Below are positions 1,721 to 43,089 of a stretch of 64,000 bases of DNA, piece after piece. Position 1 is the stretch's first letter; each line of letters begins with the position of its first letter. The notes below the pieces were generated by a model. It was not told the DNA's origin, searched no databases, and worked only from the letters and a program-made list of their open reading frames with translations. The position numbers were made by a program, and so were the translations under genes. This DNA is from Myxococcota bacterium (lineage in GTDB: Bacteria; Myxococcota_A; UBA9042; DTJE01): contig JAGOKF010000005.1 of NCBI GenBank assembly GCA_017994695.1, positions 1 to 64,000 of the forward strand, read 5' to 3'.

Positions 1721-2734
1721 ATGCGATGGCTTCCTCTCTTGGCGCTGGCCATGGTCGTGGGCTGCCAGGCCTCCCCGCCACCGGCCGCCAATGCTCCCCG
1801 CACCCGCGTCCGGACTGCCCCCGTGGCCATCGAGACCCGGGTTCTCGAGCGGCGCCTGACCGGCTACACCTTCCCCTTCGAGGCCCACGGGCCCGGCTTC
1901 CTGGTCGCCGGGCGGGTGACCTCCCTGGCGGTGGACGCCGGGGACCGGGTCCGGAAGGGGCAGCTGCTGGCCACCCTGGCCCCCGAGGACTACGCGCTCC
2001 AGAAGCGCCTGGCCGAGATCCAGGTCGAGGCCCTCGCTCCCAACGTGGAACGGGTGGACCGCCTCGTGCAGGAGCAGGCGTTGCCCCAGGCCACCCGCGA
2101 CGAGGTCCAGGGGCGCTGGCGGGCCGCCCTGACCCAGCGGGAACAGGCGGATCGCCTGGTGGGCCATACCCGGCTGGTATCCCCCATCGACGGCGTGGTG
2201 CTGGAACGACGCACCGCCGTCGGCCAGGTCATCGGCGCCGGGATGCCCGCGGTGGTGCTGCTGGACCTGTCCCGGGTCAAGGTGAAACTGGCGGTGACCC
2301 AGTCCGAACTGGCCCTCTTCGAGGTCGGCACCGAGGTGGCGGTGGACTTCCCCGGCGTGGCCCAGAACCGCCCCGGGAGGGTCCATTCCGTGTCGCTGCT
2401 CCCGGACACGAAGACCCGCACCTGGGAGGTCGAGGTGGCGGTGGACAACGCCGACGGGCTGCTGCGTCCGGGCCTGCTGGCCCGGGTCTCCCGGCAGCAG
2501 CGGGAGGTGTCGGGGATCTTCATCCCCCTGGACACCGTGCGCCATGACCTGGACCGGCAGCCCCTGGTGCTGGTGATGGACCCCTCGACCCGCAAGGTCC
2601 TGGCCCGGCCCGTCTCCCTGGGGGACCTCTTCGGCACGAAGGTCCAGGTGCTGTCGGGACTGGCCGAGGGCGACCTCCTGATCGTCGAGGGCCAGGGCTT
2701 CGTGAACCCCGGGGACGAGGTGCTGGCCCCATGA
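1721..2734 (+). CDS. RND efflux periplasmic adaptor (membrane-fusion) lipoprotein
   Basis: Membrane-fusion protein that links an inner-membrane RND pump to an outer-membrane channel. It has 337 residues from the ATG at 1721, chosen for the GGACGGAGG site just upstream and a clean lipoprotein signal ending VVGC (Cys15). The two halves of the lipoyl-like barrel-sandwich domain are visible (DAGDRVRKGQLLATL and SPIDGVVLERRTAVGQVI). They flank a short alpha-hairpin of about 60 residues. A beta-barrel and membrane-proximal domain follow. The stop overlaps the permease start by 4 bases (ATGA), so the two are translationally coupled. The hairpin is short compared with AcrA/MexA. No TolC-type gene is nearby, so the channel must be encoded elsewhere. 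Confidence 0.9.
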   Translation: MRWLPLLALAMVVGCQASPPPAANAPRTRVRTAPVAIETRVLERRLTGYTFPFEAHGPGFLVAGRVTSLAVDAGDRVRKGQLLATLAPEDYALQKRLAEIQVEALAPNVERVDRLVQEQALPQATRDEVQGRWRAALTQREQADRLVGHTRLVSPIDGVVLERRTAVGQVIGAGMPAVVLLDLSRVKVKLAVTQSELALFEVGTEVAVDFPGVAQNRPGRVHSVSLLPDTKTRTWEVEVAVDNADGLLRPGLLARVSRQQREVSGIFIPLDTVRHDLDRQPLVLVMDPSTRKVLARPVSLGDLFGTKVQVLSGLAEGDLLIVEGQGFVNPGDEVLAP

Positions 2735-5700
2735 AACTGGCCTCGTTCAGCGTCCGCAATCGCACCCTGATCGCGATGGCGGTGCTGGCCGTGGTGGCCT
2801 GGGGCACCCTGAACTACCTGGACATCAGCCGCCGGGAAGACCCGGAGATCAAGATCAGCCTCGCCCTGGTGATCACCATCTGGCCCGGCAAGAGCGCCGA
2901 GGACGTCGAGCGCCTGGTCACCCGGAAACTGGAGGAGGAGATCGAGAAGCTCTCGACCCTCCAGCAGATGAAGTCCATCACCCGGGAGAACCTCTCCCTG
3001 ATCCTGGTGGACATTGACTTCAACGCCGACACCGCCATCGAGTGGCAGCGCCTCCGCAACCGCCTGGAGGAGGCCCGGAAGCATCTTCCCCCCGGCGTGA
3101 TCGGCCCCCGGGTGATGGACGACTTCGGCGACGTCACCGCGATGATCTACGCCCTGCGGTCCCGGACCGCCGAGCCCCGGGAACTGAAGTACTGGGCCGA
3201 CCAGTTGAAGGCCCGGATCCGGGCCCTGCCGTCGGTGGGCAAGGTGAACCTGCTGGGGGAGCAGCAGGAGGTGATCTACATCGAGGGACCCCTGGATTCC
3301 TTCACCACCTACGGCTTCTCCCCGCTGGTCGCCGCGCGCATCCTCGAGGCCCAGAACGTCAACCTGCCCTCGGGGTACCTCCGGACCCCCGACGCCAACC
3401 TCCGCCTGGACACCCCCGGCAGCGTCACCTGGGTGGACCAGATCCGGGAGGCGGTGCTGGACGTGGCCTCGCAGTCCGGCGCGCCGCTGAAGGTGAAGGA
3501 CGTCTTCTCGGTGCGCCAGTCCTACGAAGACCCCCCGATCTCCTTCTTCGAATCGTCCTCGGAGCCCGCCATCGGCCTGGACATCCGGATGGCCCCGGGG
3601 AACAACATCGTGCAGATGGGACGGGAGGTCCAGGCGGTCGTGGAGGACTTCCGGACCCAGTTGCCTCCCCACATCCAGATGGACCTGGTCCACGACCAGC
3701 CCCGGGAGGTGGACGAGTTCGTCGGGTCCTTCCTGCAGAACCTCTGGGAGGGACTCGTCCTGGTCATCCTGGTGATGCTGCCCCTGATGGGACTCCGGGC
3801 CACCGCCATCGTCGCCGTGGCCCTTCCCCTGTCCATCGTGGCGACGCTCGCCGTGATGCCCGCGATGAAGGTGGACCTCGAGCAGGTGGCCATCGCCGCG
3901 TTCATCGTGGCCCTGGGGATGCTGGTGGACAACGCCATCATCGTGGTGGACAACATCGATCGTCACCTGGCGCGAGGGGAGGACCCCGTCACCGCCGCCA
4001 CCCGGGGCACCGACGAACTGCTCCGTCCCATCCTGGTGGGCACGATGGGCACGGTCTTCGCCTTCGGCCCCCTGCTGATGCTGAAGGACGAGGTCGGAGC
4101 CTACGTCCGGAGCCTCCCGCTGGTCGTCTCGGCCTCGATGCTGGCGTCCCTGGTCGTCGCCGTCACGGTGACCCCCCTGCTGGCCGCCCGCCTGATGCGC
4201 CACTCCACCGGCCAGGCCTCCGGGACCGGCATCCCGAAGGGGCGCGTCTCCCGGGTCTACGCCGCCGCCCTCCGGGGGGGCCTGAAGCGCAAGCCGGTGG
4301 TGCTGCTGCTGGCCCTGGCGGCCTTCGTCGGGGCCGCGGCCCTGCTGCCGCGGATCGGGTTCAGCTTCTTCCCGGAGGTGGACCGGGACCAGTTCACCAT
4401 CGACCTGTGGCTGCCCGAGGGCTCCGGCATTGCGAAGACCACCGCCAAGGTCCGGGAGGTGGAGGAGATCCTGCGACAGGAACCGGAGGTCCGGTCCTGG
4501 GCCTCCTTCGTCGGGGAGGGCGGTCCCCGGTTCCACATCACCGTGATGCCGCAGTTCAACTCCCTGAACTACGCCCGCCTGCTGGTCAACACCCGGGATC
4601 CCAAGGCCACCCGGCCCCTGGCGAACCGTCTGAAGGACGTCTTCCGGGAACGGATCGTCGGGGCGAGGATCACCCCGAAGGCGATCCTGATGGGGATCCC
4701 GGTCGAGGCCCCGGTCGCGTTGCGTGTGACCGGCCCCGACCTCCAGGTGATGGGCCGGATCTCCCAGGAGATCCAGCAGATTCTCCGGGACACGCCCGGC
4801 ACCGACATGGTCCGGGACGACCTGGGCCAGGAGGTCCCGAGCATTCGGGTGGACCTCGATGCCGAGGCGGGCCTGATGGTGGGCGTGACCGCCACCGAGA
4901 CCGCCGTGGCGCTGCTGACCGCCCACGAGGGCCTGCCGGCCACCGAGGTCCACCACCAGGACGTCACCATTCCCGTCCGTCTCCGGGCGGCGGCCGAGGA
5001 CCGGGTCTCGGGGCGCACGATCCAGGACCTCCGGGTACCCTCCTCGGTGACCGGGGCCAAGGTCCCCCTGAACGCCATCGCCACGCTGCGTCCCTACTGG
5101 GGCACGGGCGTGATCCACCGGACGGACAACCAGCGGAGCGTGACCGTGATGGCCGAGGTGCACAATCGGCTGGCCGCCGACGTGCTCCGGGACGCCCTGC
5201 CGAGGATCCGGGCCCTGGACCTGCCGCCGGGCTATTTCCTGTCCATCGAGGGCGAGGAGAAGGAGCGGTCCAAGGCCTTCGGCCAGTTGACCACCGTCTT
5301 CTTCGTGATCGTGGGCCTGCTGCTCGCGATGCTGACGATGCAGTTCCACAGTCTGAAACGGGCCTCGGTGGTCCTGGCCTCGGTGCCCCTGGCGATCATC
5401 GGGGCGGTGCTGGGGCTCTGGCTGTCGGGGAACACCTTCAGTTTCATGGCCTTCCTGGGGGTGGTGTCCCTGGCGGGCATGGTGATCAAGAACGCCGTGG
5501 TCTGGGTGGAGTTCGTGGACCGGGAACTGGACTCGGGCCTGTCGATCCGGGACGCCGTGGTCCAGGCGGGCATCTGGCGCTTCCGGCCCATCCTGCTGAC
5601 CACCGCGACGACCGTTCTGGGCCTGCTGCCCCTGGGCCTCTTCGGAGGCGTGCTATGGGAGGGGATGGCCTGGGCCATGATCGCCGGCCTGCTGGTCTCG

Positions 5701-16833: not shown

Positions 16834-19503
16834 ATGTCCCGATTCCTTCGGATCTGCGGAGCGGCGGTCCTGTTCGCGGCGTTTCCCCGCGTCGCCCTGC
16901 CCTGCGGACCGGGCGTCCACATCCGGGAGGCCAGGGCCCTGCTGCAACGCCTGGCGGCCGGGGACCCTCTCTGGGCCGAAACCGCCCGGGTCCCCTTCGC
17001 CGAGGCCTACCTGGCCTTCGGCGCCATCGCTCCGGACCTCCAGTGGGCGGTTCCCGAGTTCTCCTTCGGCCACGAGTTCTCGCTGGCCTATGCCCTGCTG
17101 GACCGGGGGGACCAGAGGGGGCCGGAATCCCGCCTGTTCGGCCTGGGCTTCCTGTCCCACGTCACCGCGTCGGACCCCGCCTGCGAGCAGTTCTATGCGC
17201 CGACGATGATGGCGGCGGCGGGAATCGGCGTGGTGGACCTGAACGGATCCGACGACGGGCCGAAAGGAGAGGCCGAAATGCTCTTCGAGAGCCTCGGCGA
17301 CCTGATCCTGGGGGACTGGGACGCCCTGGTCGAAACGGTCTGGACCTTCTGGCTGGAGGGCGACGAGGCGAAGAACCGGGGGTTCCAGATCTTCGCGTGG
17401 TACTGCGAGGAGGCCTCCTCCTTCCTGGAGCGTCCCGTGGACTGCGGCCTGGCATGGACCCATTTCGCCGGACTCCTGGCCCAGGCCGACGGCATCCTCG
17501 GGGGCATGTCCCTGGAGGATTTGAAGGACTTCGCCCGATCCATGATCGAACAGCCGCTGCCGGACCTGATGGACCTCTTCCTGTCGGGGTTCCTGCAGCA
17601 GTTCCTGGGGGACCGGTTCGTCCCCTCGGCCAACTTCGAACGGGAGAAGGAGCGGTTCTTCCGCAGCCCCTTCGCCGACCAGGGATTCTGGGCGATCTAC
17701 GACGGCGGCCTGGGCCAGTTGGGGCCGTCCTTCGCGGTGGACCGGCTGGTGCTGCGCAACGACGGCTTCCCCTCGTGGATCGACAAGCCCCTGATCACGG
17801 GGAACATCGAGGCGGCGATGGCGACGCTCCCGGGGGAGTTCTCGGTGGTCCCGGGCCTGATCTTCGACGGACTCGAGTGGAGGGACGACCAGGGACATGT
17901 CGTGCGGTCCCTGTCTCCGACGGACCAGGGGCGGGGCCTGACGCTGTGGGTGCGCCTGTACAGCGCGGTCCGGATCGCGGGGGACCTGCGGGTCGTCGTG
18001 AAGGGGGACCGGCCCGGGGACGACACGGCCGGGGATCCGGTGCTGGCGGAGGAGGTCTTTCCACTGGTGGTGAACCCCCTGAACCTGGTCCGGGAACCCC
18101 GGGTCGAGATCCTGCTGCCCTTCCGGGCCGTCCTGGAGGGGGTCCGGGGCCTCTACGCGGAGTTCTTCTTCCAGGATTCCCCCCTGCCCTGTTTCAGCAC
18201 CAACTGGGACCGGGTCTGGCGGACCGGGACCTTCGACTTCGAGCAGCCGGCCACCTGGGACGCCTTCGGAACCTATGACCGGTGGCCCCCCTCCCTGCCC
18301 GTGGCGGGGACCGACGTGGAGGACCCCTGGGTCTTCGTGAAGGTCCGGGTGGCCCCGGGAGGAGGCGGCGTGGACCGGGCCCGGGTGACCCTGACCGACG
18401 GCGATCAGACCCGGGACGTGGTCACCGGGTGGAACGGCGTCGCCGTGTTCCCGAAGACCGGCCTTCAGCCGGTGACCCTGGCCGCCACCGCGCCGGGGTT
18501 CGGATCGGCGGACCCCGTCCAGGTGACTCCCCGGAACCTCGAATCCGTCTGGGCGGAAATCTTCCTGCACGCATTGCCGGAGTTCACGGCCCCGGCCGGG
18601 ACCTGCCTCCCGGACCGCCGGTGCATCCCCTTCTCGATCTCGGCAGACCCCTTCCAGAACCAGGTCGCGACCTTCACCGTGGTGGCCGAGGGGCCCGGGT
18701 CGCCGCCGATCGCAGGAGACCCGGTGGAGGTCCAGCCAGGACAGGACAGGAACGCCTGCCTCCCCTCGGAACAGCCCGACGGCACCCGGGTGCACCTCCG
18801 GGCGACGCCCCGCTACAAGGACGGTTCCCCGGGACTGACCGGGACTTCCCGGGAACTCACCCTGGACGCCTCGGCACCCGAGGGCGACACCCCCGGAATC
18901 CTGCCCGGGGTGACGTGCCGGGGCGAAGCGCCGCCTCCCCCGTCCTGGACCGTTTCCTGGAAGGTCACCGAGCCCCACTCGGACCTGGTCGAGGTCGCCT
19001 ACCGCCTGGGCGAGGACGAATGGACCCTCGTGCCGGGGGACTCCTGGACCCCTGACGGCCCGGGCAGATGGCAGGTCATCTTCCCCGTGATGGCGGGTTC
19101 CACCCCGTCGGGACAGGTCCTGCACCTCCGGGCCCTGAACTGCGCAGGACTGGCCATGGAGACCACCGCGACCCTTCCGGACTGGGCCTCCCTGCCCCCC
19201 TGCGCCGGGCCGGACCAGGGCCCCGAGGAGATCCCGGATCCCGGCCCCTCGGGGGATCTTCCCGGACCGGACCTCCCCCGGGACGCCGCGAACGACGTTC
19301 CGGGTTCGGACCAGCCGGGCATTCCCGATGCCGGCCCCGACGGGACGCCTCCTTCCGGGGGCGGAGGAGGAGGGTGCGCCCTCTCGGACCCCGCCCCCGT
19401 TCCGGCGGGCTGGCTGCTGCTGGCGGTCCTCCTGGGCATCGGCGCGAGGGCAAGGCGCCGGGAGTCCCCCCTGCATCCTCCGGCGAAACATGCTAGAAAA
19501 TAG
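16834..19503 (+). CDS. Zinc-dependent phospholipase C-like surface protein with MYXO-CTERM-like tail
   Basis: Large exported protein of 889 residues. A signal peptide (about 1-23) precedes a domain resembling bacterial zinc-dependent phospholipase C. It shows GVHIREARALL, FGAIAPDLQW, FGHEFSLAYALL and LFGLGFLSHVTASD, with His/Asp residues where the family binds zinc. A carboxypeptidase-regulatory/Ig-like stretch lies near 500-560. A Pro/Asp/Gly-rich linker leads to a Gly run and Cys (GGGGGGCALSDP), one hydrophobic helix (AGWLLLAVLLGIGA) and an Arg cluster, the architecture of MYXO-CTERM sorting signals. A 15-residue extension follows the Arg cluster. The AAGGAGG site supports the ATG at 16834. 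Enzyme activity is inferred from motifs only. Confidence 0.75.
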   Translation: MSRFLRICGAAVLFAAFPRVALPCGPGVHIREARALLQRLAAGDPLWAETARVPFAEAYLAFGAIAPDLQWAVPEFSFGHEFSLAYALLDRGDQRGPESRLFGLGFLSHVTASDPACEQFYAPTMMAAAGIGVVDLNGSDDGPKGEAEMLFESLGDLILGDWDALVETVWTFWLEGDEAKNRGFQIFAWYCEEASSFLERPVDCGLAWTHFAGLLAQADGILGGMSLEDLKDFARSMIEQPLPDLMDLFLSGFLQQFLGDRFVPSANFEREKERFFRSPFADQGFWAIYDGGLGQLGPSFAVDRLVLRNDGFPSWIDKPLITGNIEAAMATLPGEFSVVPGLIFDGLEWRDDQGHVVRSLSPTDQGRGLTLWVRLYSAVRIAGDLRVVVKGDRPGDDTAGDPVLAEEVFPLVVNPLNLVREPRVEILLPFRAVLEGVRGLYAEFFFQDSPLPCFSTNWDRVWRTGTFDFEQPATWDAFGTYDRWPPSLPVAGTDVEDPWVFVKVRVAPGGGGVDRARVTLTDGDQTRDVVTGWNGVAVFPKTGLQPVTLAATAPGFGSADPVQVTPRNLESVWAEIFLHALPEFTAPAGTCLPDRRCIPFSISADPFQNQVATFTVVAEGPGSPPIAGDPVEVQPGQDRNACLPSEQPDGTRVHLRATPRYKDGSPGLTGTSRELTLDASAPEGDTPGILPGVTCRGEAPPPPSWTVSWKVTEPHSDLVEVAYRLGEDEWTLVPGDSWTPDGPGRWQVIFPVMAGSTPSGQVLHLRALNCAGLAMETTATLPDWASLPPCAGPDQGPEEIPDPGPSGDLPGPDLPRDAANDVPGSDQPGIPDAGPDGTPPSGGGGGGCALSDPAPVPAGWLLLAVLLGIGARARRRESPLHPPAKHARK

Positions 19504-33648: not shown

Positions 33649-36600
33649 ATGCGACCTTGGATGACCGGGATCATCGTCGTGGCCGTCGCGGGGATGCCCC
33701 GGAATTCCTGGTCCCAGGACCTCCCGGCCTGGGAGGAGGAGGGATTCGTCCCGATGGCCCCATCCGAGGATCCCGTCCAGTCGGACGCCGGGACCTCGAA
33801 GCCGCCCCCCGAGGATCCCTCGGAACCTCCGGCCGCCTGGCCCCCGGAAGAGGAGGCCGCCGACGGGGAGGGTCCGGACCCCTGCCTGGAAGGCCCCCTG
33901 GTCGACCGGGATCTCCGCGGCTGCCACGGATCGCCCTGCGACCGTCCCGATTTCCGGGCCGCCCTGATGGACCTGGCGGACCTCGAGGTCGGGCGGGTCC
34001 TCTCCCGGGCGCAGCGGGCCGCCGGACTCCAACGGGTGCTCGGAACCGGGGCGTTCTTGTCGGCCTCCATCACCTGCGAGCCGGTGGTGGGAGGCGTCGC
34101 CGCCCTGCTGGACGTGGACTGGAAACGGCGCATCCGCCGGATCGAGGTCCGGGGGAACTCCCACTTCCGCGACAGCGAAGTCCTGGGCCGGGCGGGCCTG
34201 CTGCCCGGAGACCCCCTGGACCCGCGGGATCCCCGGTCCCGGGAGGCCATCGATCGCACCCGGGAGGCGGTGTTGAAGGCCTACCAGGAGGACGGATACC
34301 AGGGAACTGCCGTGGAAGTCCGGACGAAGGAGATCGGCGAGAACCTGCTGGACGTCGAGATCCGCATCCAGGAGGGAAGGCGGGTCAAGATCCGGGAACT
34401 GGCGATCCTGCTGCAACCGTCGTCCGGGGACGCCCCCCGTTCCGCCGAGGAGGAGTGCCCCCGGCTCCGAGAACGGGACCTGCGCCGGTTGAGCGGCCTG
34501 TCGATCGGGAACGCCCTGACCGAACGGACCATCCCCGAGGCCAGCCGGAGGATCGTGCGGGCCCTGCGGAGCCTCGGGTTCACCCGGGTCCAGGTGAAGG
34601 CCTTCCTGGAACAGTCCAGCCAGGGACTGCGCCTCCAGGTGACCTACGACTCCTGCTGGCGGATCCGGTTCCACGCCCGGGACCGTTCCCAGCCGGGCCA
34701 GCGGGGATACCGTCCCTTCGGGAACGACGACCTGGTCCTCTCGATGCCCTTCGGGGACTCGGGAGCCTTCGACCTCGCCGAGGCCCGGCTGGGCCAGGAG
34801 GCCATCCGCCAGTGGCTCGAGTCCCAGGGATACCCCTTCGCCGAGGTCATCCTGGAATACCGGGAGTACCGGACCGCCCGGGACGACCCCTCCAGCCAGG
34901 GCCCCGTCGCAGGACGGATCGACTACTTCATCACCCGCAACCAGCGGGCCGAGATCCGGCGGATCGTGTTCGATGGCGTCCGTTCCCTTCCCGAAAGGCG
35001 CATCCGGGAGGCGATGGCGACCAGGCCATACGACTTCTTCGGCGACAGCGGCTTCCTGTTCCCGGACCAGCTCTTCGCGGACCTGGACCGGATCGCCCGT
35101 CTCTACCAGGAAGAGGGCTTCTGGAAGGTCCGCTTTCCCGGACGGCCCGATGCGACGGCCCGGCGCGTCACGACCCGGGAAGGCGACTGGACCGTCCACA
35201 CCTTCGTCCAGGGGGATCGGTCCTTCCAGGTCCGGGTACCCCCCGGGGACACCGAGGGCATCGAGGTCCGGATTGCCGTGGAGGAGGGCCCCCGTCGAAC
35301 GATCGGGACGGTGCGACTGGAGGGATCCCTCTCACGGCCCGTGGCGGAGGCGGAGAAGGTGCTGGACCTCCGCCCGGGCAGCCCTCTGTCCCCGGTCCGG
35401 ATCCGGGACGCGATGGACCGCCTCCGTCGCTGGTACGCCGCCAACGGCTTCCTGCGCACGCGCATCCAGGTCTCCTGCGGCGCCGAATCCCCCTCGGGGC
35501 CCTGCGACCTGGATGCCCTGGAAGGCACGGTGGCGGACCTCGTGATCCGCGTCGAGGAGGGCCCCCCGTCGACCGTCGGCGCGGTTCTCCCCTTCGGGCT
35601 GCGGCGGACGGTGCCCGGGGTCGTGCTGGACCGGTTCCCGGGACCCGGTGATCGGAACGACCAGGAACTGGTGGCGGACGGCGTCCGGTTCCTGAACAAC
35701 CTCGGCATCTTCAGCAGCGTGCAGGTGACGGCCGTGGGCGCCGAGGAGACGCCTCCCAGGGAACGGGTCGCGCTGGTGGTCGAGACCCGCGAAGCCTCCA
35801 ACCGGTTCCTGGACTTCGCGGTGGGCTTCGAGACCCTGAACGACTCGAGGGCCGCGACCCTGGTCCCGGGCATCGGGCAGGGCATCTCCCACGGCGTCTC
35901 GGCCTCGGACCGGCAGGTCGGCGGGTACGGCCGGTCCCTGCAACTGGGGCTGCCGGACATCCTGCTGACCCTGGAGGCCCGCTACACCGACCAGAACTTC
36001 CTGGGGCGGGCGAAACGCCTCTACCTGCCGGTGAAGTACGGCCTCTCCTTCACCGCGTGGGATCGATTCGCCTCCTTCGCCCCGACCTGGCTGGACCCCC
36101 ATTTCTTCGTCCGGAACCTCGTCTTCCGGGTGACCCCCTTCGCCGAGTACGACCGGGCGACCACCCGCCTGGACCAGGCGCGGATCGGCGGCGAGTTCGA
36201 GATCGCCCGGGAACTGGTTCCCCACCTGTTCGGGTCGCTGCTCTGGGAGACATCGGGGCTGCGCATCCGGGATCCGGACGACCCGGTGGCCTCTTCCTGG
36301 GGACCCTGGCGCTACGAGAACAAGGTCATCCCCACGGTAACGTGGGACCGGCTGGATCACCCGGTGGACCCGAAGAACGGGGGACTGGTCCAGGTGTCGC
36401 TGACCTACCTGAACGCCCTCGGACAGGGGAACTTCCTGAAATACGAGGTCCTGGGCAAGGGCTTTCTGACCATCAAGCGGTTCCTGACCATCGCCGTCTC
36501 GGCGCGACTCGGGGGATCCCGGGCCTTCGGCGGGGCGCGGGACCTGCCGGAACAGGAGCGCTACTCCCTCGGAGGGAACCGGGGAATCCGGGGCTTTTCC

Positions 36601-37053
36601 AACGACGGGATCTCCCAGTACCTCCCCGACGGCAGCCTGCGGACCACCGTGGAGCAGGTGGCGGAGCGGAACCCCGACGGGAGCCCGGTCGTGGACCCCC
36701 TCACCGGACTGCCGGTCACCTCCTCCCGATTCCGCAAGGTGCAGGGGGGCGACGCGATGCTGGCGGGGAGCCTCGAACTGCGGTTCCCCCTCCTGGCGTC
36801 CCTGCACCTGAACGGGGCGGTCTTCTACGATGTGGGAGCGCTGTCGGAGGACTTTCTGGACCTGCATGGCCGGTCCTTCCGCCACGGCGCCGGCATCGGC
36901 ATCCGGTGGATGATCGGCGGGGTGGTCCCCCTCCGGCTGGACTACGGCTTCGTCCTGGACCGGCGGTGCAAGGAGGTGGATTCGTCCACCGGGGCCTGCT
37001 CCCGCCGGGAGGAGATCGGGAACATCCATTTCGGGGTGCTCTACACCTTCTGA
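33649..37053 (+). CDS. Omp85-family outer-membrane protein (TamA/BamA-like)
   Basis: Outer-membrane beta-barrel insertase component of 1,134 residues. A signal peptide ending near SWSQ is followed by an acidic, Pro-rich linker of about 60 residues, which is unusual. Several POTRA domains follow (RRIRRIEVRGNSHFRDSEVL at about 161 opens the clearest one). The 16-strand barrel begins near 720. It contains SLGGNRGIRGF, the counterpart of the conserved RGF/VRGY loop motif, and ends in the aromatic C-terminal strand FGVLYTF. Being next to tamB suggests TamA, but at about twice TamA length it is larger even than BamA. The 3' end overlaps the convergent pseudouridine synthase gene by 13 bases. Confidence 0.88.
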   Translation: MRPWMTGIIVVAVAGMPRNSWSQDLPAWEEEGFVPMAPSEDPVQSDAGTSKPPPEDPSEPPAAWPPEEEAADGEGPDPCLEGPLVDRDLRGCHGSPCDRPDFRAALMDLADLEVGRVLSRAQRAAGLQRVLGTGAFLSASITCEPVVGGVAALLDVDWKRRIRRIEVRGNSHFRDSEVLGRAGLLPGDPLDPRDPRSREAIDRTREAVLKAYQEDGYQGTAVEVRTKEIGENLLDVEIRIQEGRRVKIRELAILLQPSSGDAPRSAEEECPRLRERDLRRLSGLSIGNALTERTIPEASRRIVRALRSLGFTRVQVKAFLEQSSQGLRLQVTYDSCWRIRFHARDRSQPGQRGYRPFGNDDLVLSMPFGDSGAFDLAEARLGQEAIRQWLESQGYPFAEVILEYREYRTARDDPSSQGPVAGRIDYFITRNQRAEIRRIVFDGVRSLPERRIREAMATRPYDFFGDSGFLFPDQLFADLDRIARLYQEEGFWKVRFPGRPDATARRVTTREGDWTVHTFVQGDRSFQVRVPPGDTEGIEVRIAVEEGPRRTIGTVRLEGSLSRPVAEAEKVLDLRPGSPLSPVRIRDAMDRLRRWYAANGFLRTRIQVSCGAESPSGPCDLDALEGTVADLVIRVEEGPPSTVGAVLPFGLRRTVPGVVLDRFPGPGDRNDQELVADGVRFLNNLGIFSSVQVTAVGAEETPPRERVALVVETREASNRFLDFAVGFETLNDSRAATLVPGIGQGISHGVSASDRQVGGYGRSLQLGLPDILLTLEARYTDQNFLGRAKRLYLPVKYGLSFTAWDRFASFAPTWLDPHFFVRNLVFRVTPFAEYDRATTRLDQARIGGEFEIARELVPHLFGSLLWETSGLRIRDPDDPVASSWGPWRYENKVIPTVTWDRLDHPVDPKNGGLVQVSLTYLNALGQGNFLKYEVLGKGFLTIKRFLTIAVSARLGGSRAFGGARDLPEQERYSLGGNRGIRGFSNDGISQYLPDGSLRTTVEQVAERNPDGSPVVDPLTGLPVTSSRFRKVQGGDAMLAGSLELRFPLLASLHLNGAVFYDVGALSEDFLDLHGRSFRHGAGIGIRWMIGGVVPLRLDYGFVLDRRCKEVDSSTGACSRREEIGNIHFGVLYTF

Positions 37054-38255
37054 CGGGGGGACCGGGAGCGCCCGGAAGGCCGCCTGCCGGGTCGGTCCCG
37101 GCGGACCGGGGTCTTGGGAGCGGGAGCGGCAGGACGCCGGGTTCCCTTCGCCGGACCGCGAGCGGGAGTCCCGGTCCGGAGGGAACCGGCCGCCGACCGG
37201 GGCCGCTTGCCGGCGGCCGCCTGCCGGACCGCCCGTTCCACGAGGGCCTCGAACGCCTTGCCGGGAACCGGGGACTCCCCCTTCGAATGGCCGCGGGCAG
37301 CCGAGGGCCTCCCGGTGCCTTCGACCACCGTCCTCCTCCGGTCCCGATCCGGCGTGGTGGAGGCAGGCCGCCGCGACGGGGAGGCCCCCCGTCCCGTGGA
37401 AGTCCGCGCCGGCCCACGACCGGTCGCCCGCGGGCGGGCCGCCGGAGCCGATCGGGTCCCCGAGCCCGGGGGTCGGCCGTGCCCCCGGTCCTTCCCCTCG
37501 GGAGGCGGCGGCCCCCCGACGAAGGCCCCCGGGTCCTCGACGGCCCGGATCAGCATCTCCACCTCGGCCTCCCGGAGGTGCCGGAAGGCCCCCGGGGGCA
37601 GGGAACCCAGGCGGATGGGCCCGAACTGCACCCGTTTCAGTTTCAGGACGTTGAAGCCCATCGCCTGGAACATCCGCCGGACTTCCCGGTAGCGGCCCTC
37701 GTCCAGCACCAGCCGGACCCAGACGTTGCTCCGGACCCGGGGTCGATCGAGAGGCACCGCCTCCCGGGCCCGGGCCATCCCGTCGTCCAGGCGCACCCCT
37801 CGGACCAGCCGGTCCAGGGCCCACTGGGGAACCCCCCCCTGGACCTTCACCTCGTACACCCGCTCGACGCCCCGGGAACGGCGGGTCAGTTCCCGGGTCA
37901 GGTTCCCGTCGTTCGTGAACAGCAGCAGCCCCTCGCTCAGGAAGTCCAGCCTCCCGACGGCGTGCACCCGGACGGGCAGCGGGGGCAACAGGTGGAAGAC
38001 GCTCCGGCGCCCCTCGGGGTCCCGCTCCGAGCAGATGGTCTCCCGGGGCTTGTGCAGCACGAGGTAGAGGCGATCCTCCTTCCGGCGGACGTGCTCCCCG
38101 TCCACCCGGACCCGATCGACTGCCGGGTCCACCTGGCGTCCCGGCTCCGCCGGGCCACCGTTCACCGTCACCCGCCCCTGGGTCACCAGTTCCTCGGCCC
38201 GCCTCCGGGAAATCCCCAGGGCGTCGGCCAGGAACCTCTGCAGCCGAATCATCAT
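37041..38255 (-). CDS. RsuA/RluB-family rRNA pseudouridine synthase with long basic tail
   Basis: Makes pseudouridine in ribosomal RNA. It has 404 residues from ATG-ATG at 38255, chosen for GGGGAGG upstream. An S4 RNA-binding domain (about 3-50) precedes the catalytic domain with GRLDFLSEGLLLFTNDG, nucleophile Asp104. The catalytic part ends near residue 245. The remaining 150 residues are low-complexity, rich in Arg, Pro, Gly, Ser and Ala, and have no counterpart in E. coli RluB of similar composition that I can name. The target uridine cannot be assigned, so no symbol is given. It is divergent from the DUF2505/EutN operon. Confidence 0.9.
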   Translation of the reverse strand: MMIRLQRFLADALGISRRRAEELVTQGRVTVNGGPAEPGRQVDPAVDRVRVDGEHVRRKEDRLYLVLHKPRETICSERDPEGRRSVFHLLPPLPVRVHAVGRLDFLSEGLLLFTNDGNLTRELTRRSRGVERVYEVKVQGGVPQWALDRLVRGVRLDDGMARAREAVPLDRPRVRSNVWVRLVLDEGRYREVRRMFQAMGFNVLKLKRVQFGPIRLGSLPPGAFRHLREAEVEMLIRAVEDPGAFVGGPPPPEGKDRGHGRPPGSGTRSAPAARPRATGRGPARTSTGRGASPSRRPASTTPDRDRRRTVVEGTGRPSAARGHSKGESPVPGKAFEALVERAVRQAAAGKRPRSAAGSLRTGTPARGPAKGTRRPAAPAPKTPVRRDRPGRRPSGRSRSPRQKV

Positions 38256-38295
38256 CCCGGATCCTCCCCTCCCTCGGGCCCCTGCCGTGGGAAAT

Positions 38296-38320
38296 CGTTG
38301 CCACTCCGGCGGCGGCAACG
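38296..38320. promoter_or_regulatory. Operator-like inverted repeat upstream of the DUF2505-EutN operon
   Basis: CGTTGCC (38296-38302) and GGCAACG (38314-38320), perfect 7-base arms 18 bases centre to centre. The repeat covers the -35 and most of the spacer of the predicted promoter, a position where a bound regulator would block RNA polymerase. Confidence 0.45.
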
Positions 38321-38327
38321 GTATCAT
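38298..38327 (+). promoter_or_regulatory. Putative promoter of the DUF2505-EutN operon
   Basis: TTGCCA (38298-38303), 18 bases, TATCAT (38322-38327). The leader of about 85 bases is GC-rich and ends with GGGGGGA ahead of the ATG at 38420. Confidence 0.5.
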
Positions 38328-38419
38328 CGCGGCACCCTCCGGGCAACCGGGCCGACCGGCCGGGGCGATCCCGGGGGCGGTCCGGCGGCCCGGCGATTCC
38401 TGGCAAGGGGGGACCCTCC

Positions 38420-38938
38420 ATGAAATACCGTCTCGAACACGAGTTCCCGTGCGACCGGAAGACCCTGCTGCAGGAGATGTTCCGCAACGGGATCATCGAG
38501 ACCCTGAAGCCCCGGATGACCACGATCCTCGAGGCGGAGACCCTCTCCTGGGAGGAGAAGAACGGCATCGTGCGGCGGCGAGTGCGCTACCTCCCCGTGC
38601 CCAAGATCTCCTCCGTCGGTCCCAAGAAGGTCGAACCCCGCTGGATGGAGTGGATCGAGGAATCGGAGGTGCGCCTGGATACCGGCGCGGCGCAGTACGT
38701 CAACGTGCCCTCGACGTCCCGGGTCGCCGAACTGCTGAAGAACCGGGGAACGGTCGAGTTCGTGTCCCTCGGGCCCGACCGCACCAGGCGGATCCTGTCG
38801 GGGGAACTCCGGGTCGAGGTCTTTCTGCTCGGGTCCCTGGCGGAACGGCTGATCTTCGCCTACGCCAAGGAGATCGTGGACGAGGAGGCCCGGGCGCTGT
38901 CGGGTCACCTGGCGGACCTGGCCCGGAGCGGGTCATGA
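38420..38938 (+). CDS. DUF2505-like (SRPBCC-fold) protein
   Basis: Cytoplasmic protein of 172 residues without signal peptide or TM. The opening MKYRLEHEFPCDRKTLLQEM and the alternating strand pattern resemble DUF2505, a START/SRPBCC-like fold with a hydrophobic ligand pocket. The C-terminal long helix (about 135-170) fits that fold. No catalytic residues can be named. It is the first gene of a four-gene set in which every junction overlaps by 4 bases, so it is very probably made together with the three EutN-like proteins. Its role beside them is unknown. Confidence 0.65.
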   Translation: MKYRLEHEFPCDRKTLLQEMFRNGIIETLKPRMTTILEAETLSWEEKNGIVRRRVRYLPVPKISSVGPKKVEPRWMEWIEESEVRLDTGAAQYVNVPSTSRVAELLKNRGTVEFVSLGPDRTRRILSGELRVEVFLLGSLAERLIFAYAKEIVDEEARALSGHLADLARSGS

Positions 38939-39267
38939 TCCTGGCCCGGGTGATCGGCCCCGTCTGGGGGGCCCGGCAATGCCCCGCCCTCGAGGGCCGC
39001 CGGGTGCTGGAGGTGCAGCGCCTGGGCCTGGGCCGGGCCTCCGGGGGCGAGGAGATCCGCGCCGACTGCGACGAGCGGCACCTGCAGCCGGCGACGCTGC
39101 TGGCGGTGGACGCCCTGGGGTCCGACGCGGGACAACTGGTGCTGGTGGCCGTCGGGAGCCGGGTCCGGGACCTGACCCTGGGACCCGACGTGCCCACCAA
39201 GAACGTCGTGGTGGCCATCGTGGACGAGGCCTTCCTGGACCCCTCGGGCACCGGAGGCGGCCGATGA
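38935..39267 (+). CDS. EutN/CcmL-family microcompartment vertex protein, copy 1
   Basis: Protein of 110 residues with the bacterial microcompartment pentamer (BMC-P) fold signature. It opens ILARVIGPVWGAR, then LEGRRVLEVQRLG, AVDALGSDAGQLVLVAVGSRVR and VVVAIVDEAF. In known shells such pentamers cap the twelve vertices. It has a longer insert before AVDALG than the two following copies. The start overlaps the DUF2505-like gene by 4 bases and its stop overlaps copy 2 by 4 bases. No BMC-H or BMC-T shell protein is in the window. Confidence 0.87.
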   Translation: MILARVIGPVWGARQCPALEGRRVLEVQRLGLGRASGGEEIRADCDERHLQPATLLAVDALGSDAGQLVLVAVGSRVRDLTLGPDVPTKNVVVAIVDEAFLDPSGTGGGR

Positions 39268-39605
39268 TCCTGGGAAGAGTGGTCGGGCAGGTCTGGGGCA
39301 CCCGGAAGCACCCCCGGCTGGAACGGCAGAAGATGCTGATCGTGCGTCCCCTGTGCTGGTACGGCCCGGACCACCCGACGGACCACCTGGTCGCCGTGGA
39401 CCCCGTGGGCGCCCAGGTGGGACAGGACGTCGTGGTGTGCCTGGGGCTCCCGGCCCGCCTGGCCCTGGGGGACCCGCGGCACCCGGTCGAGGCCTCGGTG
39501 GCCGCCATCGTGGACCGGGTCTCCCTGTCCCGGAGCGCGGCGGCCCGACCGTTCTTCCGGTTCGCCGGGGACCGGCGGCCCGAGGGCCTGGAGGAGACGC
39601 CATGA
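39264..39605 (+). CDS. EutN/CcmL-family microcompartment vertex protein, copy 2
   Basis: Second BMC-P-like protein, 113 residues: ILGRVVGQVWGTRKHPRLE, then KMLIVRPL, VAVDPVGAQVGQDVVVCLG and AAIVDRVSL. It lacks the usual Ser in the G-S/x-x-A-R turn (here GLPAR). A 25-residue C-terminal extension is Arg-rich. It is clearly diverged from copy 1 at protein level, so this is not a recent duplication. It shares 4-base overlaps with both neighbours. Confidence 0.87.
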   Translation: MILGRVVGQVWGTRKHPRLERQKMLIVRPLCWYGPDHPTDHLVAVDPVGAQVGQDVVVCLGLPARLALGDPRHPVEASVAAIVDRVSLSRSAAARPFFRFAGDRRPEGLEETP

Positions 39606-39898
39606 CCCGGGGTCGGGTGATCGGGGAGGTCTGGGCCACCCGGCGGCATCCCCGCATGGAAGGGCGGAAATGGCTGCTGGTGGCCGAGGTGCGGGCGACG
39701 GACCAGGGCGAGTCGTTCACCGGCCGGGTCCTCGTCGCCGCGGACCCGCTGGACGCGGGGCCGGGCGACCCCGTCGTCGTCGCCTTCGGCAGCGGGGCCC
39801 GCAACGCCCTGGAAGCCCGATCGCGGGACGTGCTCGCCGATGCGGCGATCGTGCAGATCCTCGACGGGACCACCTCCCCGGGCGGAAGGTTTTCTTGA
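39602..39898 (+). CDS. EutN/CcmL-family microcompartment vertex protein, copy 3
   Basis: Third BMC-P-like protein and the shortest, 98 residues: RGRVIGEVWATRRHPRMEG, then KWLLVAEV, VAADPLDAGPGDPVVVAFG, SGARNALE and AAIVQILD. The length matches classical CcmL/EutN. It is the last gene of the operon; the FG-GAP lipoprotein gene follows 56 bases later with its own ribosome site. Three pentamer genes in a row are known from some complete microcompartment loci, where shell hexamer and enzyme genes accompany them. Here they are alone. Confidence 0.86.
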   Translation: MTRGRVIGEVWATRRHPRMEGRKWLLVAEVRATDQGESFTGRVLVAADPLDAGPGDPVVVAFGSGARNALEARSRDVLADAAIVQILDGTTSPGGRFS

Positions 39899-39954
39899 CC
39901 CGCAACCGCCGCTCCCGGACAATGGAACCGCGTGGGAACGGGAGGCTTCTGGAA

Positions 39955-42900
39955 ATGCCGTCCTTGCGATGGTTGCTGGTCCCCCTGGCCCTGGTCGCCT
40001 GCGGCGGGTCCGGTCCCAGCCGGCCGGACTTCGGAGCAGAAGAGGACATCTCCGAGCCGGGGGAGGTGCTGGAGGGCCTCCGGGTCGAGTTCACGAAGCC
40101 CGGCGGGGGGACCGTGGACCCCGTCCTGACCGGGGTCGTCGAGGTGGGCATCCGGGTCCGGGACGACACCCCCCTCCCGGTCTCCGTCGTGGTGGAATTC
40201 CCCGGAGTGGCGACCTTCGTGCCGATCCAGCAGAACCTGTCGAAACCCGATGCATTCGTGGTCCAGGTGGACACCCGCAACGTGGCCGACGGACAGAAAC
40301 GGAAGATCCGGGCCACCGCGACCTCCGAGGACGGTCGCACCGCCGTCGCCACGCTGTCCGTGACGGTGGACAACCAGGGACCCAAGGTGGACCTCCTGGC
40401 GCCCACCCCGGAGGACGGCGCCGACTTCCTGGGCGAACTGAAGATCCGGGCCGTGGCCGAGGACAAGGGGACGGGGGTCACCCGGATCCGGGTGGTCGTG
40501 GAGGACTTCGCCTACGAGTGGCCGGGAGGAACGCCCCAGGTCCGGGCGAAACTGGACACCGGAGACCTCCCTGTGGATACGGACGGGTGGGAAGCGGGCG
40601 AAAAGGCCCTGACGATCGAGGCCTGGGACGGGGTCGCCGACCACCTGACCCGGATGGAGCGCCGGTTCCACTTCGTCCAGAAGCCGTCGTTCCAGAGCGG
40701 CCGCTTCCGCCCCCTCCCGGAGGGGAACTCCGGAACCGCGATCGTTCCCATCCGGCTGGGAGACCCGGAGGAGGGACGCTGGGGCTTCGTGCTGGCGGGC
40801 AACACGGGAGTGGCCCTCTTCCGGATCGACCCGGACACCTCTGAGGTGGAGCACCTGGCCAGCCTGGCGCAGAGCCCCTGCGGACCGGCGGGCACCGCCG
40901 ATCTGGACGGCGACGGCCGGGAGGACGTGGCGGCCTACTGCAAGACTTCCGGGGACCAGCCGGCCGCGGTCCGGGTCTTCCTGCAGAAGGACGACGGATC
41001 CTTCGCGAAGCCCCTGGCCTTCCCGGTTCCCGGGGACGTCACGGCCCTGGCCCTCGGCGAACTGAACGAGGACGGGGCGCTGGACCTGGTGATGGCCCTG
41101 AACGCCCCGACCCAGAACCTCGGGTTGATCCTGTCGAACCCCTCGGGCGGTCCCGGGTGGTCCGAGGTGCAGACCTACGCGGGGGCCATCCAGCCCACCA
41201 TGGTGGCCATCGGCCAGTACCTGGCCGGAACCAACCGCAACGTGATCTGGACCGGCCGGTCGTCCTCCCCGGTCGTCACGGTGTTTCCCGTCGCCTCCGA
41301 CGGCAGCGTCCTGGCCGGCACCAACTACTCCCTCCAGTACGCGACGAAGCCCCTCCAGCAGATCGAGGGAGCCGTCGCCGCCGCCTTCAAGGGGAATCCG
41401 GGCCGCCCCGAGTCCCTGGTCCTGGGGGACACGGGAACCGACCGGATCTACCTGGTGAAGGTCCTTTCCCAGGCCGGGGGACAGCCCACCCTGAACGTCG
41501 CCAGCGCCTGGCAGACCGGGGTCAAGCCGGAACGGTTCGCAATCGGCGACCTGACCGGAGACGGGGTCCCCGAGGTGGTCGCCCTGTGCTCCACCAGCCG
41601 GATGCTCCATGTCCTGAAGGGGGCGGCGGACGGGCCCTCGACGACGCTGCAGCAGGTGCTGGCGGGCCCGGTCCAGGACCTGGCCCTGCTGGACTTCACC
41701 GGCGACGGGGTGCTGGACGCGGTGCTGCTGGACCAGGCGGGCACCGGGGTCTACCTGCTGACGATGGACCCCGCCCGGAAGCGCCTGACCGGCGCCGAGA
41801 TGCTGCTGAACCCGATGACCGACGTCCTGGCCCTCCAGGCGGGGCGGTTCACGAAGGCCCTGGCCTCGCCGAACCAGAACCTGAAGGACCTGGCGATGCT
41901 CGGCCCGAACCCCGCAGGGCTCCCCCAGGTGGCCGTCTTTGCCGCCGACGCGACGCTCCGGCTGCCCGTGGCGACGGCCCTTCCGACCCTGCTGACCAGC
42001 GTGACCGGGGTCACCGGCATGGTGGCAGCCCAGCTGGACTCCACCTCGGACAACACCTCCCTGACCGACCTGGTGATCACGACGGCCCGGGCCGGCGGGT
42101 CGGGGGGCGAGCGCCCGGCGACGGGGGAGGTCCTGTTCCTGCAGGCCGACGCCCAGAGCCACACGGCAGTGGCCACGACCCAGAAGGCCTTCGATTTCGG
42201 GGATTCGCCGAACCTGGTGGCGGTCGGCGACCTGGACTGGTCCCCCTCCTCCACCGGGACCTCCCTGAAGGACCTCGCCTTCGTCACGTCCTTCTGGGAG
42301 GGGACCCCCCCGGAGAAGCGCACCCGGGTCCAGCCGTACTTCTACCACCTGGGCACCGGGGACTACCTGCGGAAGAACCTCCAGGGGGTCCCGGTGGAGG
42401 GGCCCCTGGTGAGCCCGGGAAGGAATCCGCAGCAACTGGTGGCGTTCCCCCTCCGGCGGCCCCTCTCCTATGCCGTGAAGTCCCAGCCCTACTACACGGA
42501 CCTGATCACCGTGAACGGCGGTACCGGCGACTTCACGGTGTTCCCCGCCCAGGGAGGCGGCTTCTTCTTCGCCAGCAGCCCCGAGCGGCAGAAGTCCTTC
42601 GCCGTGGGGTCCAATCCGAAGGCCCTGGTGGCGGGATACCTGCGCCACCCGATGGACGGGTCGGTCCCCGACGAGGAGGCCGTCCAGGTCTTCCCGGACG
42701 TCGTGGTGATGCTGGACCGGGAGGTTCTGGTCCTCTTCAACACGAACACCGTCCTGAAGGACCTGAGCCTGAGCCCGGAACTGCTGTCCTACGAGCCTCC
42801 CCTCCCCCTCCACCACTCGGGTTCCGGGCCGGTGGACCTGGACCTGGCGGACATGAACCACGACGGCTACCTGGACCTGGTGGTCCTCGATGGCGCCGAC

Positions 42901-43089
42901 CGGACCGTGAGCGTCTACGTGAACCTGGGGTCCCGGTCCTTCTCCGAACCCTTCGTGTTCCCCGTGGGAGCGGGCCCGAGCCGGATGGTGGTGACGGACC
43001 TGGACGACAACGGGTGCCCCGACGTCGTGACGCTGGACCGGGAGGGGCGGACCCTGACCTTCCTGCGGAACCTGCTGACCTGCCGCTAG
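39955..43089 (+). CDS. FG-GAP/VCBS-repeat lipoprotein
   Basis: Exported lipoprotein of 1,044 residues. The ATG at 39955 is preferred over the in-frame ATG at 39922. It follows GGGAGG at a good distance and directly opens a lipoprotein signal ending VAC (Cys17). An Ig-like domain (about 130-230) comes first. Repeats of the FG-GAP/VCBS propeller type follow, with calcium-binding loops such as DLDGDGREDVA, ELNEDGALDLV, DLTGDGVPEVV, DFTGDGVLDAV, DMNHDGYLDLV and DLDDNGCPDVV. It is probably a cell-surface beta-propeller. Partner and ligand are unknown. Its stop overlaps the convergent zinc-ribbon gene by 4 bases. Confidence 0.85.
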   Translation: MPSLRWLLVPLALVACGGSGPSRPDFGAEEDISEPGEVLEGLRVEFTKPGGGTVDPVLTGVVEVGIRVRDDTPLPVSVVVEFPGVATFVPIQQNLSKPDAFVVQVDTRNVADGQKRKIRATATSEDGRTAVATLSVTVDNQGPKVDLLAPTPEDGADFLGELKIRAVAEDKGTGVTRIRVVVEDFAYEWPGGTPQVRAKLDTGDLPVDTDGWEAGEKALTIEAWDGVADHLTRMERRFHFVQKPSFQSGRFRPLPEGNSGTAIVPIRLGDPEEGRWGFVLAGNTGVALFRIDPDTSEVEHLASLAQSPCGPAGTADLDGDGREDVAAYCKTSGDQPAAVRVFLQKDDGSFAKPLAFPVPGDVTALALGELNEDGALDLVMALNAPTQNLGLILSNPSGGPGWSEVQTYAGAIQPTMVAIGQYLAGTNRNVIWTGRSSSPVVTVFPVASDGSVLAGTNYSLQYATKPLQQIEGAVAAAFKGNPGRPESLVLGDTGTDRIYLVKVLSQAGGQPTLNVASAWQTGVKPERFAIGDLTGDGVPEVVALCSTSRMLHVLKGAADGPSTTLQQVLAGPVQDLALLDFTGDGVLDAVLLDQAGTGVYLLTMDPARKRLTGAEMLLNPMTDVLALQAGRFTKALASPNQNLKDLAMLGPNPAGLPQVAVFAADATLRLPVATALPTLLTSVTGVTGMVAAQLDSTSDNTSLTDLVITTARAGGSGGERPATGEVLFLQADAQSHTAVATTQKAFDFGDSPNLVAVGDLDWSPSSTGTSLKDLAFVTSFWEGTPPEKRTRVQPYFYHLGTGDYLRKNLQGVPVEGPLVSPGRNPQQLVAFPLRRPLSYAVKSQPYYTDLITVNGGTGDFTVFPAQGGGFFFASSPERQKSFAVGSNPKALVAGYLRHPMDGSVPDEEAVQVFPDVVVMLDREVLVLFNTNTVLKDLSLSPELLSYEPPLPLHHSGSGPVDLDLADMNHDGYLDLVVLDGADRTVSVYVNLGSRSFSEPFVFPVGAGPSRMVVTDLDDNGCPDVVTLDREGRTLTFLRNLLTCR

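What the first reader, a model, noticed from the sequence alone, without database searches (positions are those of the whole stretch)
38420..39898. Operon of a DUF2505-like protein and three BMC vertex (EutN/CcmL) proteins with no shell or cargo genes
Three consecutive genes encode clearly different EutN/CcmL-type pentamers, coupled by 4-base overlaps to each other and to an upstream SRPBCC-like gene. Pentamers are normally minor shell components encoded beside BMC-H/BMC-T proteins and cargo enzymes. None of these occurs in the 38 kb before or 24 kb after. The set may be a satellite of a microcompartment elsewhere, or a shell-independent use of the pentamer fold, perhaps with a hydrophobic ligand handled by the DUF2505-like partner.
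Basis: partly seen in the sequence, partly recalled or inferred. Interest (0 to 1): 0.75.

Follow-up and report, generated by a model that had tools for sequence, protein, structure and literature searches.

The report
Satellite quartet of BMC vertex proteins
The window holds three of four extra "corner" proteins of a bacterial protein organelle whose shell is encoded elsewhere in the genome; these extra corner proteins are inherited together with an uncharacterised enzyme pair that looks like new organelle cargo.

Summary
An SRPBCC/START-fold gene and three distinct BMC-P (EutN/CcmL) genes overlap by 4 bp at 38420-39898, with no other shell gene on the 76-kb contig. The genome, a Myxococcota MAG, nevertheless encodes a full HO-type microcompartment dispersed over other contigs: BMC-H, BMC-T, CcmP-like proteins, AldDh, a canonical BMC-P triplet, and EutB/EutC with a EutL-EutT-type fusion. 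The operon is therefore a satellite; a shell-independent role is not supported.

Relatives showed more than an ordinary split. The three genes are P1-P3 of a conserved quartet, P1-P4. In several families the quartet continues into X (a EutQ-like N-terminal domain, a helix, a UPF0237-type ACT domain) and UPF0210/DUF711. In this genome P4-X-DUF711 sits on another contig. Each of P1-P4 is one clade, separate from the triplet. Among 284 Myxococcota genomes, DUF711 occurs in 21 of 22 quartet genomes and 1 of 262 others, even where unlinked. Best reading: the quartet supplies extra vertex proteins matched to a UPF0210 cargo that X tethers to the shell. That function is inferred. The SRPBCC gene is a lineage-specific neighbour. 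I found no description of the module in the open-access papers searched.

The parts
38420..38938 (+). SRPBCC/START-like protein, 172 aa, weak DUF2505 match; lineage-specific first gene of the operon
   Evidence: directly upstream of P1 in all 13 family members and in sister-family genome G106
38935..39267 (+). P1, BMC-P (EutN/CcmL) vertex protein, quartet member 1
   Evidence: PF03319 58 bits; AF2 model matches CcmL and the HO-shell BMC-P; clade P1 support 100/97
39264..39605 (+). P2, BMC-P vertex protein, quartet member 2
   Evidence: PF03319 79 bits; best PDB match is the BMC-P of the Haliangium shell, 5v74; clade P2 support 99/97
39602..39898 (+). P3, BMC-P vertex protein, quartet member 3 (P4 lies on contig C65:25071-25379, with X and DUF711)
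   Evidence: PF03319 75 bits; clade P3 support 100/97; P4-X-DUF711 in L020

Best explanation
The operon is a satellite BMC locus. It encodes three members of a four-paralogue set of vertex pentamers (P1-P4) that supplements the ordinary BMC-P triplet of a dispersed HO-type microcompartment. The set belongs to a gene module P1-P2-P3-P4-X-DUF711. Proposed mechanism: X, with a EutQ/EutT-like N-terminal domain, a helix and a UPF0237-type ACT domain, docks to the shell through its N-terminus and brings in the UPF0210 (DUF711) enzyme through its ACT domain. P1-P4 form alternative pentamers at vertices of the same shell, giving that shell vertices suited to the UPF0210 reaction. Shown here: homology, fold, gene order, orthology, co-occurrence, and the presence of a complete shell. 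Inferred: that P1-P4 form pentamers and enter the HO shell, that X is an adaptor, that UPF0210 is cargo. The SRPBCC protein is probably a co-expressed accessory acquired in one order; its role is unknown.
For: Shell and cargo genes are present elsewhere in the genome; BMC-H matches HO-5815 at 162 bits and the main-locus BMC-P matches Hoch_5814 at 118 bits. Seven BMC-P orthogroups are each one clade in IQ-TREE, support 94-100. The P1-P4 order is conserved in 6 families counting the split form; P4-X-DUF711 is contiguous with it in G106, G133, G226, G249, G201, G180 and G267, and split into P1-P3 and P4-X-DUF711 in the window's family. DUF711 is in 21 of 22 quartet genomes and 1 of 262 others; the one miss, G110, has its contig end inside X. 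In G077 and G264 quartet and X-DUF711 are unlinked yet co-occur. X N-terminus vs EutQ residues 1-53: hhalign 88%; vs EutT 72%; control EutD 0.1%. EutQ's N-terminal H1/H2 was shown experimentally to bind the Eut shell (PMC12487888). All 22 quartet genomes have PF00936 genes.
Against: No expression, interaction or structural data. Co-occurrence is inflated by kinship (13 of 22 genomes are one family). G124 has X-DUF711 but only triplet BMC-P, so the cargo does not strictly need the quartet. X of G180 lacks the EutQ-like segment and keeps only the helix and ACT domain. The EutQ similarity covers about 50 residues. MAG contigs leave the true distance between loci unknown.
Confidence: 0.7

Rival explanations
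1. The quartet makes the vertices of a second, separate compartment that shares BMC-H/BMC-T with the HO organelle but encloses UPF0210; which vertex set is expressed decides which compartment forms.
For: The quartet and triplet are separate sets in the tree (triplet grouped 100/89) and in separate operons. Only one clear single-domain BMC-H is seen in G000, so it would have to be shared.
Against: No AldDh or BMC-H travels with the quartet in any locus read. Nothing here distinguishes one shell with mixed vertices from two shells.
Confidence: 0.18
2. Shell-independent use: P1-P3 form hetero- or homopentamers that work with the SRPBCC protein as a soluble ligand-binding complex.
For: The four genes overlap by 4 bp in the window and stay adjacent in 14 genomes of one order. 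A START-like fold could bind hydrophobic ligands.
Against: The quartet exists without SRPBCC next to it in four other families. Every quartet genome has shell genes. BamA, RluB and FG-GAP neighbours are equally conserved within the family.
Confidence: 0.06
3. Ordinary redundant vertex paralogues, kept by gene dosage or drift, with no function distinct from the triplet.
For: Pentamers are needed at only 12 vertices; satellite loci are common (PMC8217296).
Against: Four deep, separately conserved orthogroups, invariant positions such as G74 and R78 (P1 numbering), Ka/Ks 0.05-0.25, and coupling to DUF711.
Confidence: 0.06

Closest known systems
Satellite loci of HO-type BMCs (Haliangium ochraceum type; Sutter et al. 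2021, PMC8217296)
   Same: Same shell type; dispersed loci, including a satellite of two BMC-P plus an aldolase (here C110) and a EUT module with EutL (here C149), both described for HO BMCs.
   Different: The paper's main text reports a BMC-P triplet as the pattern for HO loci; here a further four-member set occurs with X and UPF0210. PF05167/DUF711 is not mentioned in its main text.
Melioribacter roseus with seven BMC-P genes (Axen et al. 2014, PMC4207490)
   Same: Seven BMC-P spread over main and satellite loci.
   Different: That genome was not available to compare. In the Bacteroidota sampled here, genomes with 6-8 BMC-P carry duplicated triplet types and none of the P1/P3/P4 types.
EutQ (ethanolamine BMC shell-cargo adaptor, PMC12487888)
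   Same: X shares the N-terminal ~50-residue domain with EutQ and EutT, followed by a variable linker and helix.
   Different: The C-terminal domain is a UPF0237-type ACT domain (1zpv-like) instead of the EutQ cupin.
UPF0237-UPF0210 proteins of Streptococcus pneumoniae (SP0239, PDB 2ha9; ACT protein 1zpv)
   Same: DUF711 here matches 2ha9 at 501 bits; the ACT part of X matches 1zpv.
   Different: 1zpv is a bare 91-aa ACT protein; here about 115 residues with a EutQ-like domain are added and the genes sit with BMC-P genes.

Membership tests
BMC-P / EutN-CcmL vertex protein (PF03319) | Full-length match to PF03319 above the curated cut-off | tested here: met
   58, 79 and 75 bits against 25
BMC-P / EutN-CcmL vertex protein (PF03319) | CcmL/EutN fold | tested here: met
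   P1 model (the most divergent of the three) matches CcmL, EutN and the HO BMC-P
BMC-P / EutN-CcmL vertex protein (PF03319) | Forms pentamers that occupy shell vertices | not testable with these tools
   No multimer prediction or biochemistry available
Satellite BMC locus (Axen 2014; Sutter 2021) | Shell genes of only one kind, distal to the main locus | tested here: met
   Only PF03319 genes on C136; nothing else within 36 kb either side
Satellite BMC locus (Axen 2014; Sutter 2021) | Same genome has a main locus with BMC-H and BMC-P | tested here: met
   C42: BMC-H 18197-18424, BMC-P 18595-18843, with AldDh and BMC-T
HO-type BMC | HO-like BMC-H, BMC-P triplet, AldDh, BMC-Tdp | tested here: met
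   BMC-H to HO-5815 162 bits, T1 to Hoch_5814 118 bits, triplet clades T1-T3, BMC-type AldDh (NCBIfam PRK15398), CcmP-like proteins. The AldDh clade used by Sutter 2021 was not tested
DUF2505 (PF10698) | Score above the gathering cut-off | tested here: not met
   22.3 bits against 26.9; the SRPBCC/START fold is supported
EutQ (PF06249) | EutQ cupin domain | tested here: not met
   Members of X have an ACT domain and no EutQ cupin; only the N-terminal ~50 residues resemble EutQ
UPF0210/DUF711 (PF05167) | Full-length PF05167 match | tested here: met
   568 bits over 1-412 of 413
BMC-encapsulated cargo (X, UPF0210) | Encapsulation peptide or measured encapsulation | tested here: inconclusive
   Helix between EutQ-like and ACT parts has high hydrophobic moment, as does the AldDh N-terminus, but windows were picked by maximum

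The most novel reading that the evidence does not exclude
UPF0210/UPF0237, a widespread enzyme pair of unknown function, is a new class of BMC cargo in Myxococcota, and it has its own set of four dedicated vertex proteins. If so, vertices are specialised, possibly mixed or gated parts matched to a particular cargo and not merely interchangeable caps.
Probability: 0.35. Interest if true: 0.78.

Novelty: new variant of a known kind. Interest (0 to 1): 0.6.

Why it matters
[quoted passage not shown] A genome set with seven vertex proteins, four of which track one enzyme family almost perfectly, turns that remark into a testable question: are vertices cargo-specific? It also gives the first functional context that I could find for UPF0210/UPF0237 (solved structure 2ha9, no described function found in the open-access papers searched).

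Tried and rejected
Shell-independence was rejected because all 22 quartet genomes have PF00936 genes. Link to ethanolamine: EutB is in 16 of 22 quartet genomes but also in a large share of triplet-only genomes, so no quartet-specific link. Quartet in Bacteroidota: the five sampled genomes with 6-8 BMC-P have duplicated triplets only. A quartet-specific Trp at P1 position 11 looked promising, but half of the Bacteroidota triplet-type proteins have it too. Profile search of the SRPBCC family against the PDB gave nothing; only the fold comparison did. SRPBCC as an integral BMC part was down-weighted by its BMC-free contexts and by general synteny. A script measuring intergenic spacing across relatives failed and was not repeated (end), so the 4-bp overlaps are claimed for the window only.

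Full report
What is in the window. Four + strand genes at 38420-39898 overlap head to tail by 4 bp. The first encodes a 172-aa protein with a sub-threshold DUF2505 match and a confidently predicted START/SRPBCC fold (pLDDT 93; nearest solved structures TTHA0849, ZhuI, Ups1/PRELI). The next three (P1, P2, P3) are full-length PF03319 proteins, 35-42% identical to one another. P1, the most divergent, is modelled with the CcmL/EutN/HO-BMC-P fold. All four genes are under purifying selection against a congener (Ka/Ks 0.05-0.25). No other shell gene lies on this 76-kb contig.

The rest of the genome. The window belongs to a 3.96-Mb, 97%-complete Myxococcota assembly; named relatives are uncultured Myxococcales/Deltaproteobacteria MAGs. 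Shell genes occur on six contigs. C42 has BMC-H, BMC-P, AldDh, BMC-T and two CcmP-like proteins. C97 has a BMC-T beside an RnfC/PduS-like protein. C110 has two BMC-P and a class II aldolase. C149 has EutB, EutC and a EutL fused to a cobalamin adenosyltransferase domain. C65 has one BMC-P. C136 is the window. BMC-H matches HO-5815 of H. ochraceum at 162 bits and the main BMC-P matches Hoch_5814 at 118 bits. A BMC-P pair with an aldolase as a satellite, and a EUT module with EutL, are both described for HO BMCs (PMC8217296).

The quartet. SRPBCC-P1-P2-P3 occurs in all 13 sampled members of the window's family (in one, G110, cut by a contig end) and in a sister-family genome, G106. In G106 the operon continues with P4, X and DUF711. 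In other families the same order P1-P2-P3-P4-X-DUF711 occurs without the SRPBCC gene: G133, G226, G249 and G267 (f7), G201 (f5) and G180 (f47). G077 and G264 (f36) have the four BMC-P together, with X-DUF711 on another contig. In the window's family P4-X-DUF711 sits apart from P1-P3; in G000 this is contig C65. A maximum-likelihood tree of 114 BMC-P proteins resolves seven orthogroups, P1-P4 and the triplet T1-T3, each one side of a branch (support 94-100); the three triplet groups fall together (100/89). The tree has only 104 columns, so deeper branching is uncertain.

Distribution. Of 284 Myxococcota genomes, 127 have PF03319 and 129 have PF00936. Most BMC-P-bearing genomes outside the quartet families have exactly three BMC-P. 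The quartet was traced in 22 genomes, with 5-8 PF03319 hits each; in one of them, G110, contig ends cut it, so only P1 and P4 were read. All 22 have PF00936 genes. DUF711 is in 22 genomes: 21 of the 22 quartet genomes plus G124, which has X-DUF711 but triplet-only BMC-P. The quartet genome without a DUF711 hit (G110) has its contig end inside X. Fisher's exact p = 1.6e-29, but this ignores kinship: 13 of the 22 are one family. Contrasts that kinship does not explain include f5 (G201 has both quartet and DUF711; G119 has only three BMC-P and no DUF711 hit) and the unlinked co-occurrence in f36. Of 396 Bacteroidota genomes, 73 have BMC-P, nearly all three; the five with 6-8 carry duplicated triplet types. 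Other phyla were not surveyed.

What X and DUF711 are. DUF711 matches the solved UPF0210 protein SP0239 (2ha9, 501 bits; [quoted passage not shown] The C-terminus of X matches a bare ACT-domain protein (1zpv) and NCBIfam PRK00194 just below cut-off. The N-terminal ~50 residues of X align from residue 1 with E. coli EutQ (hhalign 88%) and EutT (72%); the control EutD gives 0.1%. Pfam gives a sub-threshold hit to PDU_like (E 3e-4, G077). In Salmonella EutQ, N-terminal helices H1/H2 bind the shell and H3/H4 bind cargo (PMC12487888). Between the EutQ-like and ACT parts X has a helix-forming segment with high hydrophobic moment, but windows were picked by maximum, so this is suggestive only. G180's X has only the helix and ACT parts.

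Interpretation. Shown: a conserved module of four extra vertex-type proteins plus X plus UPF0210, in genomes with BMC shell genes (HO-type in G000), split in this genome between the window and contig C65. Inferred: X docks to the shell by its EutQ-like segment and recruits UPF0210 through its ACT domain; P1-P4 form alternative vertices of the same shell. A second compartment with its own vertices is the main rival and cannot be excluded by sequence.

The SRPBCC gene. Orthologues with the same core motif occur outside BMC-P contexts: beside lon in G133, G226 and G249, and in G208, which has neither PF03319 nor PF00936. Within the family BamA, RluB and the downstream FG-GAP gene are as syntenic as the operon itself, so adjacency there is weak evidence. 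It is best seen as a co-expressed, lineage-specific neighbour of unknown role.

Novelty and limits. I found no mention of DUF711/PF05167 in the main texts of the two BMC catalogues and no paper joining UPF0210 with BMCs in the open-access library. Supplementary files and subscription papers were not readable. Seven BMC-P in one genome was noted once, in Melioribacter roseus (PMC4207490). I rate the finding a new variant of a known kind.

Noticed in passing
L021:9150-10463 (-) = G000 contig C149: A 437-aa protein joins a EutL shell protein (residues 5-215) to a cobalamin adenosyltransferase domain similar to EutT (260-422), beside eutC and eutB: a shell-enzyme fusion. Not checked in relatives.
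   Followed up: partly
L016:12537-13148 and 2564-3211 (contig C42): Two CcmP-like tandem-BMC proteins that the Pfam BMC model scores below cut-off (19-22 bits); the first matches NCBIfam beta-carboxysome CcmP at 272 bits, also below that model's cut-off.
   Followed up: partly
L018:7730-9609 (contig C97): RnfC/PduS-like electron-transfer protein followed by a BMC-T gene, directly upstream of a ribosomal-protein operon.
   Followed up: no
L020:10407-12244; L093, L094, L111, L114: In the window's family an Lrp/AsnC-like 96-aa protein and a TPR-like protein lie next to P4-X-DUF711 in several genomes.
   Followed up: no
L083:912-1856 (G226): A gene that looks by eye like a MeaB/ArgK GTPase follows DUF711 in this quartet locus.
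   Followed up: no
L071-L073 (f7 genomes): The SRPBCC orthologue lies just downstream of a lon-like protease gene (with clpX/clpP-like genes beyond it in two of the three), read by eye from the translations.
   Followed up: partly
window 33649-43089: BamA, RluB (minus strand), the BMC-P operon and an FG-GAP-repeat lipoprotein stay in the same order in most members of the family.
   Followed up: yes
L171 (G106 contig C176): A 176-aa partial DUF711 relative besides the full-length copy.
   Followed up: no
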